35,367 nucleotides of DNA from the NCBI GenBank assembly GCA_019240115.1, contig JAFAYV010000019.1, positions 1 through 35,367 of the forward strand, in the 5' to 3' direction. The notes beneath the pieces were generated by a model, which searched no databases, was not told the origin of the DNA, and saw only the letters and a list, made by a program, of their open reading frames with translations. This DNA comes from Solirubrobacterales bacterium. GTDB taxonomy: Bacteria; Actinomycetota; Thermoleophilia; Solirubrobacterales; Solirubrobacteraceae. How positions within the stretch are numbered: the first letter of the stretch is position 1; every line of letters begins with the position of its first letter. This document shows positions 17,074 to 24,293 of this stretch, in pieces. The position numbers were made by a program, and so were the translations under genes.

Positions 17074-19716
17074 CTACGAGAGTGCCGCCTCGATCGCGGC
17101 CTGCGCGGCGGTGATCGCCTCGGGAAGCCGAGCCGGCTCGCGGCCGCCGGCGCGGGCCAGGGTGTCCCGCCCGCCGCCGCCCCCGCCGACGATCGCGGCG
17201 GCCGTCCGGACGATCTCACCGGCGCGCACCCCGCGCTCCACGACCGCCGGGGCAACCGAGGCGACGAGGTCGACGCGCTCGTCGTCGGCGCGGCCGAGCA
17301 CGATCGCCGCGGCGCCGAGCCGGCCCTTCAGCCGGTCGGCGAGCGCGAGCAGGCCGTCGCTGTCGGGCACCGCAACCGCGGCGGCGAGGACGCTGACGCC
17401 CGCGGTCTCGGTGGCGGAGGCCACCAGCTGATCGACGTCGACCCCGCCGGCGCCGTTGCCCGGAACCCGCGCGGCGCGCTCGAGCTCGCGCACCCGGCCG
17501 CGCAGCTCCTCGATCGTCTCGCCGACGCGCTCGGCGGGCACCCGCAGCAGCTCGGCGGCGCGTGCGAGCTCACGGTCGCGAGCGCGGGCGAAGGCGACGG
17601 CCTCGGGACCGGTGATCGCCTCGATGCGGCGGACGTTGGCGGCGCTCGAGGTCTCCGCGGTCACGCGGAGGAGGCCGAGCTCGGCGGTGTTGCGCACGTG
17701 GGTGCCGCCGCACAGCTCCCGCGAGAACGACCCGTCCCCCACCTCGACCATGCGCACGACGTCGCCGTACTTCTCGTTGAACAGCGCCATCGCGCCGAGG
17801 CGCCTGGCCTCGTCGAGCGTCGTCGTCAGCGCGCGCACGGCGTGGGCCTGCACGATCCAGCGGTTGACCTCGTCCTCGACGTCGCGCAGCTCGTCGGCGC
17901 TCAGCGAGCCGCCATGGGTGAAGTCGAACCGCAGCTTGTCGGGGCCGACGTAGGAGCCCGCCTGGCGCACGTGCTCGCCGAGGCGGCGGCGCAGCGCCGC
18001 GTGAAGCAGATGGGTGCCGGTGTGGTTGCAGGCGGTGGCGTGCCGCGCGGAGCGGTCGACGCGCGCCGCCACGCGCTCCCCGGGCTCGAAGGTCCCGTGC
18101 TCGGGCGCGAGCGCGACGACCTGGTCGTTGCCGAGGCGGATGACGTCGGTGACGACGGCACGACAGCCGCCGCCGGCGCACTCGAGCATGCCACCGTCGG
18201 CGACCTGCCCGCCGCCTGTCGCGTAGAAGGGCGACTCGAGCAGCTTGATGAGCACCTGGGAGCCGTCGGCGGCGACGGCGGCGCCGATCGTCGTCTGCGC
18301 ATCGGTCGTCTCGTAGCCGACGAACTCGGTCTGAAAGCCGGCGCTGGCGGCGAGCGCCTGCGCGCGCTCGCGCAGCGAATCGTCGCCGAGCTGGCGGCCG
18401 CCCGCCCGGCGGGCGCGGGACCGCTGCTCGTCCATCAGCGACTGAAAGCCCGCCTCGTCGATCCCGAGGCCGTGGTCGGTGACGATCTCCCGGGTCATGT
18501 CGACCGGGAACCCGTACGTATCGTGCAGCAGGAAGGCGTCGGCGCCTGCGATTCCCTCGGCGCCGGCGTCGCGCGCGCGGGCGATCAGCTCGTCGAGGCG
18601 GCGCAGACCCGACTCCAGGGTGCGCCCGAAGCTCTCCTCCTCGGCGCTCATCCACCGGCGCGCGAGCTCGCGGCGCTCCACGAGCTCGGGGTACTCGGCG
18701 CCCATCAGCTCGGTCACGACGTCGGCGTAGCGGTCCAGGAACCCCGGCTCCAGGCTGAGCCCCCGGCCGTGCTGGATGGCGCGGCGCATGACCCGCCGCA
18801 GGACGTAGCCGCGATCCTCGTTGGAGGGCACGACGCCGTCGCAGAGCAGGAACGTCAGGCCTCGGGCGTGGTCGGCGAGCACCCGCAGCGCCTTGTCGGT
18901 AGGGAAGTCCTCGCCGTACCGCCGCCCGGACAGCTCCTCGCCGAGCGCGATGAGCGGCGCGAACTGATCGGTCTCGAAGACGGTCTCCTTGCCCTGCAGG
19001 ACCGCCGCCAGACGGTTGAGCCCGAGGCCGGTGTCGATGTTCTTGGCCGGCAGCGGGGTCAGGACCCCCTCGGGATTCTGGTCGAACTGCATGAACACGA
19101 GGTTCCAGAACTCGAGGAAGCGCTCGTTGTCACCGCCGGGGAGATCGTCGGGGCTGCCGTGCTGCACGCCGCGATCGAGGTACAGCTCCGAGCAGGGGCC
19201 GCACGGGCCGGTGGGCCCCATCTGCCAGAAGTTCTCGTCGCGATCGCACTCGACGATCCGCTCGCGCGGGACCCCGAGCCCCATCCAGGCCTCGATCGCG
19301 TCCTCGTCGGCCCCGAGCCCGAGTGCGTCGTCGCCGGCGAACACGGTGACCCAGATGTCATCCTCGGGCAGGCCGAACCCCTCGCGGGCGAGCTCCCAGG
19401 CAAACCGGGTCGCGTCCGCCTTGAAGTAGTCGCCGAACGAGAAGTTGCCGAGCATCTCGAAGAACGTCAGGTGTCGCGTCGTCGTCCCGATGATCTCGAT
19501 GTCGGACGTGCGAAACGTCTTCTGACAGGTCGTCGCCCGGCGGCGCGGTGGCTCCTCCTGCCCGAGGAAATAGGGCTTGAACGGCACCATGCCGGCGATG
19601 GTGAACAGCACCGAGGGATCGAACTCGGCCGGGATCAGCGAGGCCGAGGCGATCCGCAGGTGCCCCTGCGACTCGAAGTACTCGGTGAAGGCGCGACGGA
19701 TCTCGTCGGAGGTCAT
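17074..19716 (-). CDS. alaS: Alanyl-tRNA synthetase
   Basis: The protein has 880 aa, full length. Domains in order are the class II catalytic core (MTSDEIRRAFTEYFESQGH, RHLTFFEMLGNFSFGDYFK), a tRNA-recognition helical region, the editing domain with its zinc-type ligands (CNHTGTHLLHAALRRRLG and CGGTHVRNT), and a C-Ala domain ending in Gly-rich GGGGGGRDTLARAGG. The ATG at 19716 gives the conserved N-terminus; an ATG 24 bases earlier is possible. It charges tRNA-Ala and clears Ser-tRNA-Ala and Gly-tRNA-Ala. It is followed by ruvX and mltG, the usual actinobacterial order. Confidence 0.97.
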   Translation of the reverse strand: MTSDEIRRAFTEYFESQGHLRIASASLIPAEFDPSVLFTIAGMVPFKPYFLGQEEPPRRRATTCQKTFRTSDIEIIGTTTRHLTFFEMLGNFSFGDYFKADATRFAWELAREGFGLPEDDIWVTVFAGDDALGLGADEDAIEAWMGLGVPRERIVECDRDENFWQMGPTGPCGPCSELYLDRGVQHGSPDDLPGGDNERFLEFWNLVFMQFDQNPEGVLTPLPAKNIDTGLGLNRLAAVLQGKETVFETDQFAPLIALGEELSGRRYGEDFPTDKALRVLADHARGLTFLLCDGVVPSNEDRGYVLRRVMRRAIQHGRGLSLEPGFLDRYADVVTELMGAEYPELVERRELARRWMSAEEESFGRTLESGLRRLDELIARARDAGAEGIAGADAFLLHDTYGFPVDMTREIVTDHGLGIDEAGFQSLMDEQRSRARRAGGRQLGDDSLRERAQALAASAGFQTEFVGYETTDAQTTIGAAVAADGSQVLIKLLESPFYATGGGQVADGGMLECAGGGCRAVVTDVIRLGNDQVVALAPEHGTFEPGERVAARVDRSARHATACNHTGTHLLHAALRRRLGEHVRQAGSYVGPDKLRFDFTHGGSLSADELRDVEDEVNRWIVQAHAVRALTTTLDEARRLGAMALFNEKYGDVVRMVEVGDGSFSRELCGGTHVRNTAELGLLRVTAETSSAANVRRIEAITGPEAVAFARARDRELARAAELLRVPAERVGETIEELRGRVRELERAARVPGNGAGGVDVDQLVASATETAGVSVLAAAVAVPDSDGLLALADRLKGRLGAAAIVLGRADDERVDLVASVAPAVVERGVRAGEIVRTAAAIVGGGGGGRDTLARAGGREPARLPEAITAAQAAIEAALS

Positions 19717-19768
19717 GGGTCGACGCAGTGTAGGTGCCATCCCCCGGGACGGCGCGGAACCGCCAGGC

Positions 19769-21226
19769 TCAAGCCAACCGGGCGATCGTGCCCCACCCGA
19801 CGACCAGCTCGCCGTCCATCAGACACGCCAGTTGGCCGGGGGCAGCGCCCTCGACGGGATCGGACAGCTCGAGGCGCAGCGAACGGTGGCGCCCCGCCTC
19901 CGGCGCGCCCGCGACGCGGGCGGCCACCGGCGACGAGCGGTAGCGCAGCTTGACCCGGTCAACGCGCTCCCCCCTCCGATGCAGCCGCGCCCCGCGCACC
20001 GCCACCCGGCGCGTGCGCAGCGCCTCCCGCGGACCGACGACGACCCGCCGGCCCGGCGCGTCCTTGTCGAGCACGAACCGCGGGCCGTCCGCCGCCGGCA
20101 GCCCGAGGCCGCGACGCTGGCCGACGGTGAACCGGTGCTGGCCGAGATGGCGCCCGAGCACCTGCCCCGACGCGTCGACTATCTCCCCGGGCGCGTCGCC
20201 GAGCCCGCCGTGGCGCGCGAGGAAGCGCGCCCGGTCGGTTCCGGCGAGGAAGCACAGGTCCTGCGAGTCGGCCTTGTCGGCCACGGCGAGCCGCGCCTGC
20301 GCGGCGAGGCGGCGAACCTCGGGCTTGCGCAGCTCGCCGAGGGGAAAGCGCATCCGGTCAAGCGAACCGGGATCGAGTCCCGCGAGCATGTAGGTCTGGT
20401 CCTTGGCGGGATCGGCGGCCGTGCGCAGCAGGGGCCCGTCGCTACTGTCGCGCTCGGCGGTCCGGGCGTAGTGCCCGGTGGCCAGCCGCGCGCACCCGAG
20501 TCGGTCGGCGAGCGCGAGCATCGCGTCGAGGCGGACGTGCCCGTTGCAGCCGACGCACGGGTTGGGCGTCTCGCCGGCGGCGTAACCGGCGATGAACGGC
20601 TCGACCACCCCGGTCCGGAACTCGTCGCGCAGGTCGATCGTCAGGTGCGCAAGCCCCATGCGGTGCGCGAGCGCGCGGGCCTGCGCGACGGCGCTCGCCG
20701 AACAGCAGCTGCGCTCGGCGTCGTTCTCGCGGTCGGCCCACAGCTCGAGCGTGACCGCGACCGTGGGCGCGCCGCTCGCCGCGACCAGGTGCGCGGCGAC
20801 GGCGCTGTCGACGCCGCCGCTCATCGCCACCAGCGTGGCCGTCGGGTCGATGGGCAGGGCCGCCCCGGCGCGGGCGGCGGCGCCGAGCGCACGGTGCAGG
20901 CCGTCGGCGGCGAGCTCGGCGGCGTGCAGCTTGCCGGGGTGCAGGCCACCGAGCTCGTCGGCAATCGTCGCGGGCCCGATGCGAGCGACGTCGAGGATCG
21001 ACCGACCCCGAATCAGGGTGACGGCGACGCTCGCCGCGGCGGTCGTCGCGCCGCAGCCCCGGGCGGAGAATCCGGCGTCGGTCACGCGGCCGCGGTCGAT
21101 CGCCACCGAGAACGTCAGCGCGTCGCCGCAGGCGCCGCCCTCGGCGTGCACCGTCCGCGCGCCGGCGGGGACGTGATCGGCGCCCTGCGGCGAGGTGAGA
21201 TGGTGCTCGAAGGCCTCAGCGTCCAT
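19769..21226 (-). CDS. mnmA: tRNA 2-thiouridine synthase MnmA with N-terminal IscU-like domain
   Basis: The protein has 485 aa, about 120 longer than usual MnmA. Residues 1 to about 115 match the IscU/NifU-N scaffold fold: Cys33 in GACGD, Cys58 in RGCGAT, and the helix PGKLHAAELAADGLHRAL. In IscU that helix starts with the third ligand Cys, but here it is Ala102. From about 130 is the thiolase: PP-loop SGGVDS at 136-141, CCS at 174-176, Cys224 and Cys227 in NPCVGCN, GHYAR, and Cys325 in SQDLCF. MnmA adenylates and thiolates U34 of tRNAs for Glu, Gln and Lys. Cys227 and Cys325 match the nucleophile and persulfide cysteines; Cys224 makes a three-Cys set. The start at 21226 is an ATG 8 bases after aspS. 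Confidence 0.95.
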   Translation of the reverse strand: MDAEAFEHHLTSPQGADHVPAGARTVHAEGGACGDALTFSVAIDRGRVTDAGFSARGCGATTAAASVAVTLIRGRSILDVARIGPATIADELGGLHPGKLHAAELAADGLHRALGAAARAGAALPIDPTATLVAMSGGVDSAVAAHLVAASGAPTVAVTLELWADRENDAERSCCSASAVAQARALAHRMGLAHLTIDLRDEFRTGVVEPFIAGYAAGETPNPCVGCNGHVRLDAMLALADRLGCARLATGHYARTAERDSSDGPLLRTAADPAKDQTYMLAGLDPGSLDRMRFPLGELRKPEVRRLAAQARLAVADKADSQDLCFLAGTDRARFLARHGGLGDAPGEIVDASGQVLGRHLGQHRFTVGQRRGLGLPAADGPRFVLDKDAPGRRVVVGPREALRTRRVAVRGARLHRRGERVDRVKLRYRSSPVAARVAGAPEAGRHRSLRLELSDPVEGAAPGQLACLMDGELVVGWGTIARLA

Positions 21227-21234
21227 CGGCGGGC

Positions 21235-23046
21235 TCAGCGCACGCGGAGCCCCAGCTCGCGCAGCTGCACGTCGTCGACCGGGGCGGGCGCGCCGGTGAG
21301 GGGATCGCCGCCGCTCGTGGCCTTGGGGAACGCGATCACCTCGCGGATGTTGTCGCGTCCCGCGAGCAGGGCGACGATCCGGTCCAGGCCGAACGCGATC
21401 CCGCCGTGCGGCGGGGCGCCGTAGCGCAGCGCGTCGAGCAGGAAGCCGAACCGGGTCGCAGCGTCGGCCTCGCCGATGCCGATCAGCTCGAACACCCGCG
21501 ACTGCACGTCGAGACGATGGTTGCGAATCGAGCCGCCGCCGATCTCTGCGCCGTCGAGCGCGAGATCGTAGGAGCGCGACAGCAGCGAGCCGGGATCGAT
21601 CAGATCCGCCGCGGTCGCAGCCTCGCCGGCGGCGGTTGCCGGCGCGGTGAACGGATGGTGCTCGGCGTCCCAGCGCCGCTCGTCGGGCTTGTAGGTGAAC
21701 ATCGGGAAGCGCACGATCCAGCGGATGTCGTGGGTGCCCTCCTCGATCAGGTGCAGCCGCCGCGCGAGCTCGAGCCGCACCGCGCCGAGGGCCCGGGCGG
21801 CGACGGGCGCCTCGTCGGCGACGATGAGCACGAGGTCGCCGGTCCGCGCCCGCAGGTGCTCGTCGATCGCGGCGATCTCGGCGGCGGAGAGGAACTTGGC
21901 CACCGGCGAGCGCCAGGGCGGGTGGGAGTCGGTTTCGTCCTGCACGAACGCCCACACCAGTCCGCCGGCCCCGTGCTGTTTGGCCAGCTCGGTCAGCTCG
22001 TCGAGCTCTGAGCGCGGGAGGGCGTGCGCCCCGACGTTGATGCCGCGCACGACGCCGCCAGCCGCCAGCGCGGCGGCGAACACCTTGAACTCGGTCTCGG
22101 CCAGCGCGCCTGAGAGGTCGTGCAGCTCGAGGCCGAAGCGCGTGTCGGGGCGGTCGGAGCCGAACCGGGCCATCGCCTCGGCGTAGGTCATCCGCGGCCA
22201 CGGGGGCGCGGGGACGTCGAATCCGGCGCGCGCGAACACCTCGCCCATCACCGCCTCGGAGAGTCCGAGGACGTCGTCCTCCTCGACGAAGCCCATCTCG
22301 ATGTCGAGCTGGGTGAACTCGGGCAGCCGGTCGGCGCGGGCGTCCTCGTCGCGGAAGCAGCGGACGATCTGGTAGTAGCGCTCGAAGCCGCCGACCATCA
22401 GCAGCTGCTTGAACAGCTGCGGGGACTGCGGCAGCGCGAAGAACGAACCGGCGGTCAACCGGGCCGGCACGAGGAAGTCGCGCGCGCCCTCGGGCGTCGA
22501 CCGGGTCAGGAACGGGGTCTCGATCTCGAGGAAGTCGTGGGCGTCGAGGACCTCGCGCATCGTGCGCACGATCCGATGGCGCAGCGCGATCGCCTCCTGC
22601 AGCGGGGCGCGGCGCAGGTCGAGCGCGCGGTGGCGCAGACGCAGGTTCTCGTCCACGGCGCCGTCCTCGTCGACCGGAAACGGCGGCGTGGCCGCGTCGG
22701 CGAGGATCTCGAGCTCTGCGACCGCGAGCTCGATCTCGCCGGTGGCGAGGTTCGGGTTGACGTTCCCGGGCGATCGACGCCGGATCCGGCCCGCGACCGC
22801 GATCACGTCCTCGGAGCGCAGGGCGTGGGCGGCGGCGTGCGCCGCGGGCGCGGTCTCGGGGCTGAACACGAGCTGCAGGATCCCCGAGCGGTCGCGCAGG
22901 TCGATGAAGATGAGACCGCCGTGGTCGCGGCGACGGTGCACCCAGCCGGCGACCCGTACGTCCTCGTCGGCGCGCAGCGCGTCGAGCTGGCCCGCCCAGG
23001 CGTCGCGATAACGGTTGGGCCGCGGCGGCTGGGTCATCGCGCTCAC
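21235..23046 (-). CDS. aspS: Aspartyl-tRNA synthetase (bacterial type)
   Basis: The protein has about 603 aa. An OB-fold anticodon-binding domain (VRVAGWVHRRRDHGGLIFIDLRD) leads, followed by class II motif 1 and 2 (FLEIETPFLTRSTPEGARDF, QSPQLFKQLLMVGGFERYYQIVRCFRDED), the bacterial GAD insertion, and motif 3 (HGGIAFGLDRIVALLAG). A GTG at 23046 overlaps the hisS stop as GTGA and has a GGGGGAG ribosome site; an ATG three codons later (23037) is the alternative. Whether it also charges tRNA-Asn cannot be decided from this window. Confidence 0.96.
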   Translation of the reverse strand: MSAMTQPPRPNRYRDAWAGQLDALRADEDVRVAGWVHRRRDHGGLIFIDLRDRSGILQLVFSPETAPAAHAAAHALRSEDVIAVAGRIRRRSPGNVNPNLATGEIELAVAELEILADAATPPFPVDEDGAVDENLRLRHRALDLRRAPLQEAIALRHRIVRTMREVLDAHDFLEIETPFLTRSTPEGARDFLVPARLTAGSFFALPQSPQLFKQLLMVGGFERYYQIVRCFRDEDARADRLPEFTQLDIEMGFVEEDDVLGLSEAVMGEVFARAGFDVPAPPWPRMTYAEAMARFGSDRPDTRFGLELHDLSGALAETEFKVFAAALAAGGVVRGINVGAHALPRSELDELTELAKQHGAGGLVWAFVQDETDSHPPWRSPVAKFLSAAEIAAIDEHLRARTGDLVLIVADEAPVAARALGAVRLELARRLHLIEEGTHDIRWIVRFPMFTYKPDERRWDAEHHPFTAPATAAGEAATAADLIDPGSLLSRSYDLALDGAEIGGGSIRNHRLDVQSRVFELIGIGEADAATRFGFLLDALRYGAPPHGGIAFGLDRIVALLAGRDNIREVIAFPKATSGGDPLTGAPAPVDDVQLRELGLRVR

Positions 23047-24293
23047 AGGGAGCTCCCCCGCAGCACGCGCGCGATCACCGACCGGGCCTCGAGCTCGGTC
23101 TGATCGCCGGACTCCATGTCCCTGAAGCCGACCCCCTCCCCCGGCGGACCGACGATCGCGACGTAGCGCGCGCCGACCCGGTCGGCGTGGCGCAGCTGGC
23201 CCTTCAGCGAGCGTCCGGCGAGCTCCATCTGGGCGCGCAGGCCGGCGTGCCGCGCCTCGTGGGCGAGCGCGAAGGCGCCGGAAGCGGCCTCGGGCGCCGC
23301 TTGGGCGACGAACAGGTCCACGGCCTCGGCGGCGACCGGCAGATCGCCCGCGGCGAGCAGCATCCGCTCGACGCCGGCCGCCCATCCCGAGGCGGGGGTC
23401 GGCGATCCGCCGAGCTGCTCGATCAGCCCGTCGTAGCGGCCGCCGCCGCCGACGCCCGACTGCGCGCCGAGCGCGTCGGAGGCGAACTCGAACACGGTGC
23501 GCGCGTAGTAGTCCAGGCCGCGCACGAGCGTCGGGTCGAGCTCGTAGGGCTGCTCCGCCGCGTCGAGCAGCTCGCGGACGCGCGCGAAGTGCTCGGCGTC
23601 CGCGGGCGCGAGGCGGTCGAGCAGCAGCGGCGCGTCGCGCATCGTCGCTGCGGTGCTGCGATCGTCGGCGTCGAAGGCGCGCATCGGGTTGAGGTCGATC
23701 CGCGACACGACCTCGGGCGAGAGGCCGTCCTCGTGCGCATGCAGGAACGCGGTCAGCTCCTCGCGGTACTCGGCGCGCGTCGCGGGTGTGCCGAGACTCG
23801 AGAGTCGCAGGCGCACCTCCCGCACGCCGACAGTCCCCAGCAGCTCGGCGAGCAGGAGGATGAGCTCGGCGTCGGTCTCAGCGCTCGGCGAGCCGATCGC
23901 CTCGGCGCCGACCTGCCAGAACTGGCGGTAGCGTCCGCGCTGGGGCGCCTCGGCGCGGTAGAAGCTCGAGAGGTACCAGAGCTTGACCGGCTGCGCGAGC
24001 TTGTGCATGCCGTGCTCGAGGTAGGCGCGGCACACCGGCGCGGTCCCCTCGGGACGCAGGGTCAGCGAACGTCCGCCGCCGTCGTCGAAGGTGTACATCT
24101 CCTTCTGCACGATGTCGGTCGACTCCCCGACGCCGCGCGCGAACAGCTCGGTGGCCTCGAAGGTCGGGGTCTCGATCCGCGCGTAGCCGGCGGCGCCGAG
24201 AACGCGGTGCGCGCGGTCCTCGAGCACCGCGCGACGCGCGGCGTCGGCCGGCAGCACATCGAATGTCCCCCGCGGGGCCTGGATCGCGCTCAC
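23043..24293 (-). CDS. hisS: Histidyl-tRNA synthetase
   Basis: This 416 aa class II synthetase has QAPRGTFDVLPADA at the N-terminus, LTLRPEGTAPVCRAYLEHGM (motif 2 region), RYRQFWQVGAEAIGS, the histidine-specific LVRGLDYYARTVFEF, GGGRYDGLIEQLGG, and a C-terminal anticodon-binding domain ending in the usual EARSVIARVLRG-type tail. It starts with GTG 16 bases after the metallo-hydrolase gene and overlaps aspS by four bases. The glyII-like - hisS order is also found in mycobacteria. Confidence 0.96.
   Translation of the reverse strand: MSAIQAPRGTFDVLPADAARRAVLEDRAHRVLGAAGYARIETPTFEATELFARGVGESTDIVQKEMYTFDDGGGRSLTLRPEGTAPVCRAYLEHGMHKLAQPVKLWYLSSFYRAEAPQRGRYRQFWQVGAEAIGSPSAETDAELILLLAELLGTVGVREVRLRLSSLGTPATRAEYREELTAFLHAHEDGLSPEVVSRIDLNPMRAFDADDRSTAATMRDAPLLLDRLAPADAEHFARVRELLDAAEQPYELDPTLVRGLDYYARTVFEFASDALGAQSGVGGGGRYDGLIEQLGGSPTPASGWAAGVERMLLAAGDLPVAAEAVDLFVAQAAPEAASGAFALAHEARHAGLRAQMELAGRSLKGQLRHADRVGARYVAIVGPPGEGVGFRDMESGDQTELEARSVIARVLRGSSL

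What the first reader, a model, noticed from the sequence alone, without database searches (positions are those of the whole stretch)
19769..21226. IscU-like scaffold domain fused to a three-cysteine MnmA
Seen: residues 1-115 carry an IscU/NifU-N pattern with Cys33 and Cys58, but the third scaffold cysteine is Ala102. The MnmA part has Cys224, Cys227 and Cys325. Known: related tRNA thiolases (TtuA, NcsA) hold a [4Fe-4S] cluster on three cysteines, while E. coli-type MnmA has Asp where Cys224 sits. Inferred: a built-in domain may deliver a cluster or sulfide to U34 thiolation. Two scaffold cysteines alone could hold only a shared or transient cluster, perhaps completed by the thiolase domain or a dimer partner.
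Basis: partly seen in the sequence, partly recalled or inferred. Interest (0 to 1): 0.75.

Follow-up and report, generated by a model that had tools for sequence, protein, structure and literature searches.

The report
tRNA thiolase with built-in IscU-like domain
A whole branch of soil-type actinobacteria makes its tRNA-sulfuring enzyme MnmA with an extra sulfur/iron-assembly (IscU-like) domain joined to its front, and that domain keeps four metal-binding residues unchanged even where its usual partner enzyme IscS is gone, which suggests a built-in sulfur hand-over step that can be tested directly.

Summary
The fusion is real: window:19769-21226 (minus strand, 485 aa) is an IscU-fold domain (1-123) joined to a complete MnmA (127-485). 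AlphaFold pLDDT is 95, pTM 0.93. The three MnmA cysteines are not new: with Cys174-Cys175 they make the CC-CxxC-C 'C-type' MnmA, whose [4Fe-4S] cluster is published for Thermus. I found no description of the fusion in the papers searched.

Across 94 fused domains of the window's order, exactly four of 116 columns never vary: Cys33, Asp35, Cys58, His101, the IscU metal ligands. Of 177 fused domains, 148 keep Cys33/Asp35/Cys58, and every one keeps exactly one of His101 or Cys102. Free IscU beside unfused MnmA keeps both. The window genome has SufS and SufU; no IscS, SufE or TusA was found. Best reading: a four-ligand (probably zinc) SufU-like sulfur-relay domain acting in cis on MnmA, not a shared-cluster scaffold. 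Relay, metal and partner are inferred. Some families lost the ligands, so the domain also has a structural or docking role.

The parts
19769..21226 (-). IscU-MnmA fusion gene, 485 aa
20858..21226 (-). IscU-fold N-domain, residues 1-123
   Evidence: NifU_N E 2e-17; A. fulgidus IscU 4eb5_C Z 21.2, rmsd 2.3, 134 aligned
19772..20848 (-). MnmA part, residues 127-485 (PP-loop SGGVDS at 136-141)
   Evidence: NF001138 329 bits; 2hma Z 40.5, rmsd 2.2, 345 aligned
21128..21130 (-). Cys33 (IscU Cys37 / SufU Cys40 position): putative metal ligand and persulfide acceptor
   Evidence: invariant in 94/94 of the order and in all 148 intact domains
21122..21124 (-). Asp35 (IscU Asp39 position), putative metal ligand
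   Evidence: invariant in 94/94
21053..21055 (-). Cys58 (IscU Cys63 position), putative metal ligand
   Evidence: invariant in 94/94
20924..20926 (-).
   Evidence: invariant in 94/94; never together with Cys102
20921..20923 (-). Ala102 in place of the third IscU cysteine (Cys106)
20702..20707 (-). Cys174-Cys175, the CC motif of C-type MnmA
   Evidence: 90% or more conserved among 68 sequences
20546..20557 (-). Cys224-x-x-Cys227 of MnmA
   Evidence: invariant among 68 sequences
20252..20254 (-). Cys325 of MnmA
   Evidence: invariant among 68 sequences
17074..19740 (-). alaS, directly downstream; conserved neighbour
21235..23385 (-). aspS ORF, directly upstream (true start probably inside the ORF); conserved neighbour
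23043..24293 (-). hisS, conserved neighbour

Best explanation
The protein is a C-type (CC-CxxC-C) MnmA that thiolates U34 of tRNA, with an MnmA-dedicated IscU-type domain fused in front. The domain holds one metal ion, probably zinc, on Cys33, Asp35, Cys58 and His101, much as SufU holds zinc on Cys/Asp/Cys/Cys. A cysteine desulfurase docks on it (IscS in the ancestral iscS-iscU-mnmA operon; SufS in the window's IscS-less order), passes a persulfide to Cys33, and the domain hands that sulfur in cis to the MnmA active site (the CC pair or the cluster held by Cys224/Cys227/Cys325). It would do in one chain what TusA-BCD-E do for E. coli MnmA. Shown here: fusion, fold, ligand conservation, lack of a detectable IscS. 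Known from papers: the C-type MnmA cluster, the SufU zinc-swap mechanism, SufS feeding MnmA in one other system. Inferred: the metal's identity, SufS as partner, Cys33 as acceptor, the in-cis transfer.
For: (1) In 94 fused domains of the window's order, four of 116 columns are 100% invariant and they are exactly the IscU ligands Cys33, Asp35, Cys58, His101 (mean column conservation 0.64; 1 in 7 million for a random set of four). (2) In 148 of 148 domains with Cys33/Asp35/Cys58, exactly one of His101/Cys102 is kept (130 His, 18 Cys), with at least three switches on the MnmA tree; canonical free IscU next to unfused MnmA in f6 and f29 keeps both. A four-ligand site fits. (3) Cys33 is kept in 11 of 11 domains of two families that lost Asp35, Cys58 and (but for one His) the fourth ligand; it is the position of the SufU persulfide acceptor Cys40 (PMC10216065) and of Cys37, the proposed first acceptor in IscU (PMC2854127). 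(4) The window genome has SufS with the His-Pro-His-Asp motif 19 residues before its catalytic Cys, as in SufU-type SufS, plus SufU, SufB and SufD, but no detectable IscS, SufE or TusA. (5) Gene order shows origin from an iscS-iscU-mnmA operon. (6) SufS feeds MnmA in the Plasmodium apicoplast (PMC10219651).
Against: No experiment; no metal or persulfide has been seen. Family f7 has only a ~70-residue relic without any ligand, and f9, f12 and f16 keep the domain but lose most ligands, so thiolation can do without the site. Sequence scores place the domain nearer IscU/NifU than SufU (61 against 37 bits), and it lacks the SufU insertion. SufU itself could supply MnmA. Docking of SufS on an IscU-type domain was not tested.
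Confidence: 0.45

Rival explanations
1. The N-domain is an in-cis Fe-S scaffold: it assembles or holds a [2Fe-2S] cluster on Cys33/Cys58/His101/Asp35 and loads or repairs the [4Fe-4S] cluster of the MnmA part.
For: IscU fold and four of the five IscU ligands are kept. C-type MnmA needs a cluster (PMC8584467). Two Cys plus His can hold [2Fe-2S] in other proteins (own knowledge).
Against: The third cysteine is lost in 130 of 148 intact domains and His in the other 18, while canonical free scaffolds keep all five ligands. No IscS found in the window genome. The genome has a SUF system for clusters.
Confidence: 0.2
2. The domain is mainly structural or a docking platform: it stabilises MnmA or binds desulfurase or tRNA, and the metal site only stabilises the fold.
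For: Families f7, f9, f12 and f16 keep a domain without the full ligand set; in f7 a ~70-residue relic with three strands and the last helix is predicted at pLDDT 93-97. The high pTM of 0.93 suggests rigid packing on MnmA.
Against: Four ligand columns are the only invariant ones in the window's order, stricter than a fold alone would ask; Cys33 persists where the metal site is gone.
Confidence: 0.25
3. The two cysteines complete a cluster shared with Cys224/Cys227/Cys325 or with a dimer partner.
For: Both cysteine sets are present and conserved; a link between the domains cannot be excluded because distances could not be measured.
Against: His101 and Asp35 already complete a site in the N-domain; Thermus C-type MnmA has a cluster on its own cysteines (PMC8584467); MnmA keeps all three cysteines where the N-domain ligands are lost.
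Confidence: 0.05

Closest known systems
C-type MnmA (T. thermophilus; Shigi 2020, reviewed in PMC8584467 and PMC11784392)
   Same: PP-loop thiolase with CC-CxxC-C; the Thermus enzyme has a [4Fe-4S] cluster
   Different: No N-terminal IscU-type domain is described in the papers read
IscU / NifU N-domain
   Same: Fold; Cys33, Asp35, Cys58, His101 positions; nearest by sequence
   Different: Third cysteine replaced by Ala; fused to MnmA; no IscS found in the genome
SufU (B. subtilis, M. tuberculosis)
   Same: Four-ligand site built on Cys-Asp-Cys plus one more; sulfur acceptor at the first Cys; SufS of the matching type in the genome
   Different: Fourth ligand is His, not Cys; no 21-23 residue insertion; fused to its presumed sulfur user
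TusA-TusBCD-TusE relay (E. coli) and YrvO-MnmA (B. subtilis)
   Same: Dedicated route that brings cysteine sulfur to MnmA
   Different: Unrelated carrier proteins, or direct transfer from the desulfurase; here the proposed carrier is in the same chain

Membership tests
C-type MnmA | PP-loop SGGxDS and MnmA domains | tested here: met
   NF001138 329 bits, over cut-off; 2hma Z 40.5, rmsd 2.2, 345 aligned
C-type MnmA | CxxC and distal Cys at the active site, CC pair | tested here: met
   Cys224, Cys227, Cys325 invariant, Cys174-175 nearly so, among 68 sequences
C-type MnmA | [4Fe-4S] cluster needed for s2U34 | not testable with these tools
   needs anaerobic biochemistry
IscU/NifU-N scaffold | IscU fold | tested here: met
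   4eb5_C Z 21.2, rmsd 2.3, 134 aligned; 8rmc_D Z 20.3, rmsd 1.8, 119 aligned
IscU/NifU-N scaffold | three cysteines plus Asp and His | tested here: not met
   Ala102 at the third cysteine; Asp and His kept
IscU/NifU-N scaffold | IscS in the genome | tested here: not met
   only SufS-level matches in G000 (95.6% complete); 3 of about 103 sampled genomes of the order have a strong IscS match
IscU/NifU-N scaffold | NCBIfam IscU/NifU score cut-offs | tested here: not met
   61 of 187.9 bits (NifU_clost), 52.5 of 192.4 (iscU)
SufU | Zn ligands Cys-Asp-Cys-Cys | tested here: not met
   Cys-Asp-Cys-His here; Cys-Asp-Cys-Cys in families f8, f10, f11, f55
SufU | 21-23 residue insertion between second and third Cys | tested here: not met
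   spacing as in IscU; insertion described in PMC10216065
SufU | bound zinc and persulfide transfer from SufS | not testable with these tools
   needs biochemistry

The most novel reading that the evidence does not exclude
A thiolase with its own built-in, metal-gated persulfide-relay domain: an IscU scaffold turned, by losing one of two adjacent ligands several times, into a SufU-like transpersulfurase dedicated to one Fe-S-dependent tRNA thiolase, and then kept with SufS as donor after IscS was lost.
Probability: 0.4. Interest if true: 0.75.

Novelty: new variant of a known kind. Interest (0 to 1): 0.6.

Why it matters
How sulfur reaches Fe-S-dependent (C-type) MnmA is unsettled, and for E. 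coli MnmA even the need for a cluster is disputed (PMC11784392). A natural fusion that keeps a presumed donor-side carrier and the acceptor enzyme in one chain gives a system in which the relay can be trapped and mutated. It also shows an IscU fold losing exactly one ligand repeatedly when it becomes dedicated to one client, a natural experiment on what separates a cluster scaffold from a sulfur carrier.

Tried and rejected
IscS-IscU-MnmA triple fusion in family f10 (L043, L096): rejected; iscS lies directly upstream in another open frame. Assembly artefact: rejected. Vestigial domain in the window's order: rejected by the four invariant columns. Literature: ten searches found no paper on this fusion, but only openly licensed PMC papers are held, and the Shigi 2020 paper itself was not; domain databases may well list the architecture. 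The f7 relic was predicted but not searched against solved folds on its own.

Full report
What is there. The ORF window:19769-21226 is on the minus strand, 485 aa. Residues 24-115 match NifU_N (E 2e-17) and 131-482 match MnmA above NCBI's cut-off. AlphaFold2 on an alignment of 68 relatives gives pLDDT 95.2 and pTM 0.93. The front part is an IscU fold (4eb5_C Z 21.2, rmsd 2.3, 134 aligned; B. subtilis SufU 6jzv_A Z 15.7, rmsd 2.2, 117 aligned), the rest an MnmA (2hma Z 40.5, rmsd 2.2, 345 aligned).

The MnmA part is of a known type. Cys224, Cys227 and Cys325 are invariant and Cys174-Cys175 nearly so among the 68 relatives. This is the CC-CxxC-C 'C-type' MnmA; the Thermus thermophilus enzyme of this type has a [4Fe-4S] cluster and is inactive in air (PMC8584467; PMC11784392). 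The 'three-cysteine' half of the finding is therefore not new.

Distribution. In 299 genomes of the class, 281 have an MnmA match, most of them across the fusion. Full-length matches also occur in other families of the phylum (f23, f55, f73, f16). Named records put the fusion in Solirubrobacterales, Rubrobacter and Thermoleophilia. Family f6 and some of f8 are unfused, and f29 has iscU and mnmA as neighbours with a stop between. The gene order hisS-aspS-(iscS-iscU-)mnmA-alaS-ruvX-mltG-aroE is widely conserved in the class and in f23, with iscS directly upstream in f10, f11, f23 and, in the unfused operon, f29; Clostridia and other phyla have separate iscU and mnmA side by side. The fusion thus most likely came from neighbouring genes of one operon.

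The ligands. I read the five IscU ligand positions in 177 fused N-domains. 148 keep Cys33, Asp35 and Cys58. All 148 keep exactly one of the next two: His101 (130; families f1-f5 and f23) or Cys102 (18; f8, f10, f11, f55). None has both, none has neither. The free IscU genes found next to unfused mnmA in f6 and f29 have both (MHCS motif). On the MnmA tree the His and Cys states need at least three changes, so the rule rests on few but repeated events, not on 148 independent ones. In the window's order (94 sequences, mean identity 51%) exactly four of 116 columns never vary: Cys33, Asp35, Cys58, His101. In two f23 genomes (L099, L100) the His-type domain is a separate gene overlapping mnmA, so the loss of the third cysteine may go with service to MnmA rather than with the fusion itself.

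Partners. The window genome has a suf locus with SufS, SufU, SufB and SufD, but no IscS-level match, no SufE and no TusA; it is 95.6% complete, so absence is likely, not certain. In the order (f1-f4), 3 of about 103 sampled genomes have a strong IscS match. The domain's four ligands are thus kept without a detectable IscS.

Mechanism. SufU binds zinc on Cys40, Asp42, Cys67 and one more Cys; SufS offers a histidine to the zinc, Cys40 swings out and takes the persulfide (PMC10216065). SufS of the window genome has the same His-Pro-His-Asp motif 19 residues before its catalytic Cys (sequence). In families f9 and f12, which lost Asp35, Cys58 and nearly always the fourth ligand, Cys33 with Gly34 is still kept in 11 of 11, as expected if Cys33 carries sulfur; since nine other columns are also invariant in that small set, this is support, not proof. 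SufS feeds MnmA in the Plasmodium apicoplast (PMC10219651). I therefore favour an in-cis sulfur relay with a four-ligand metal site over an Fe-S scaffold or a shared cluster, at about 0.45.

Limits. The relay, the metal and the SufS partner are inferred. Families f7 (relic of ~70 residues, no ligand), f9, f12 and f16 show that a ligand-poor domain can be kept, so part of its value must be structural or docking. Distances could not be measured. Novelty rests on openly licensed papers only.

Noticed in passing
L301:2009-5650:+, L302:3969-7460:-, L303:4543-8223:- (family f9 genomes): One open frame joins a molybdopterin-oxidoreductase-like protein with a C-terminal IscS/NifS-type cysteine desulfurase.
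   Followed up: partly
L041:7387-8637:+ and other f7 loci: The N-domain is shrunk to a ~70-residue relic (three strands and the last helix) with all metal ligands gone, yet well conserved and confidently predicted.
   Followed up: partly
L005-L010 (several loci of the window's genus): Gly34 is replaced by Cys (ACCD or ECCD motif) in several same-genus relatives, giving two adjacent cysteines at the putative acceptor.
   Followed up: no
L099 and L100 (family f23): IscU-like gene and mnmA are separate, overlapping frames, but the IscU-like protein already lacks the third cysteine.
   Followed up: partly
L001:1898-2557:-: A frame on the same strand between sufS and sufU of the window genome reads as an acyltransferase of the hexapeptide-repeat type (by eye), an unusual guest in a suf locus.
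   Followed up: no
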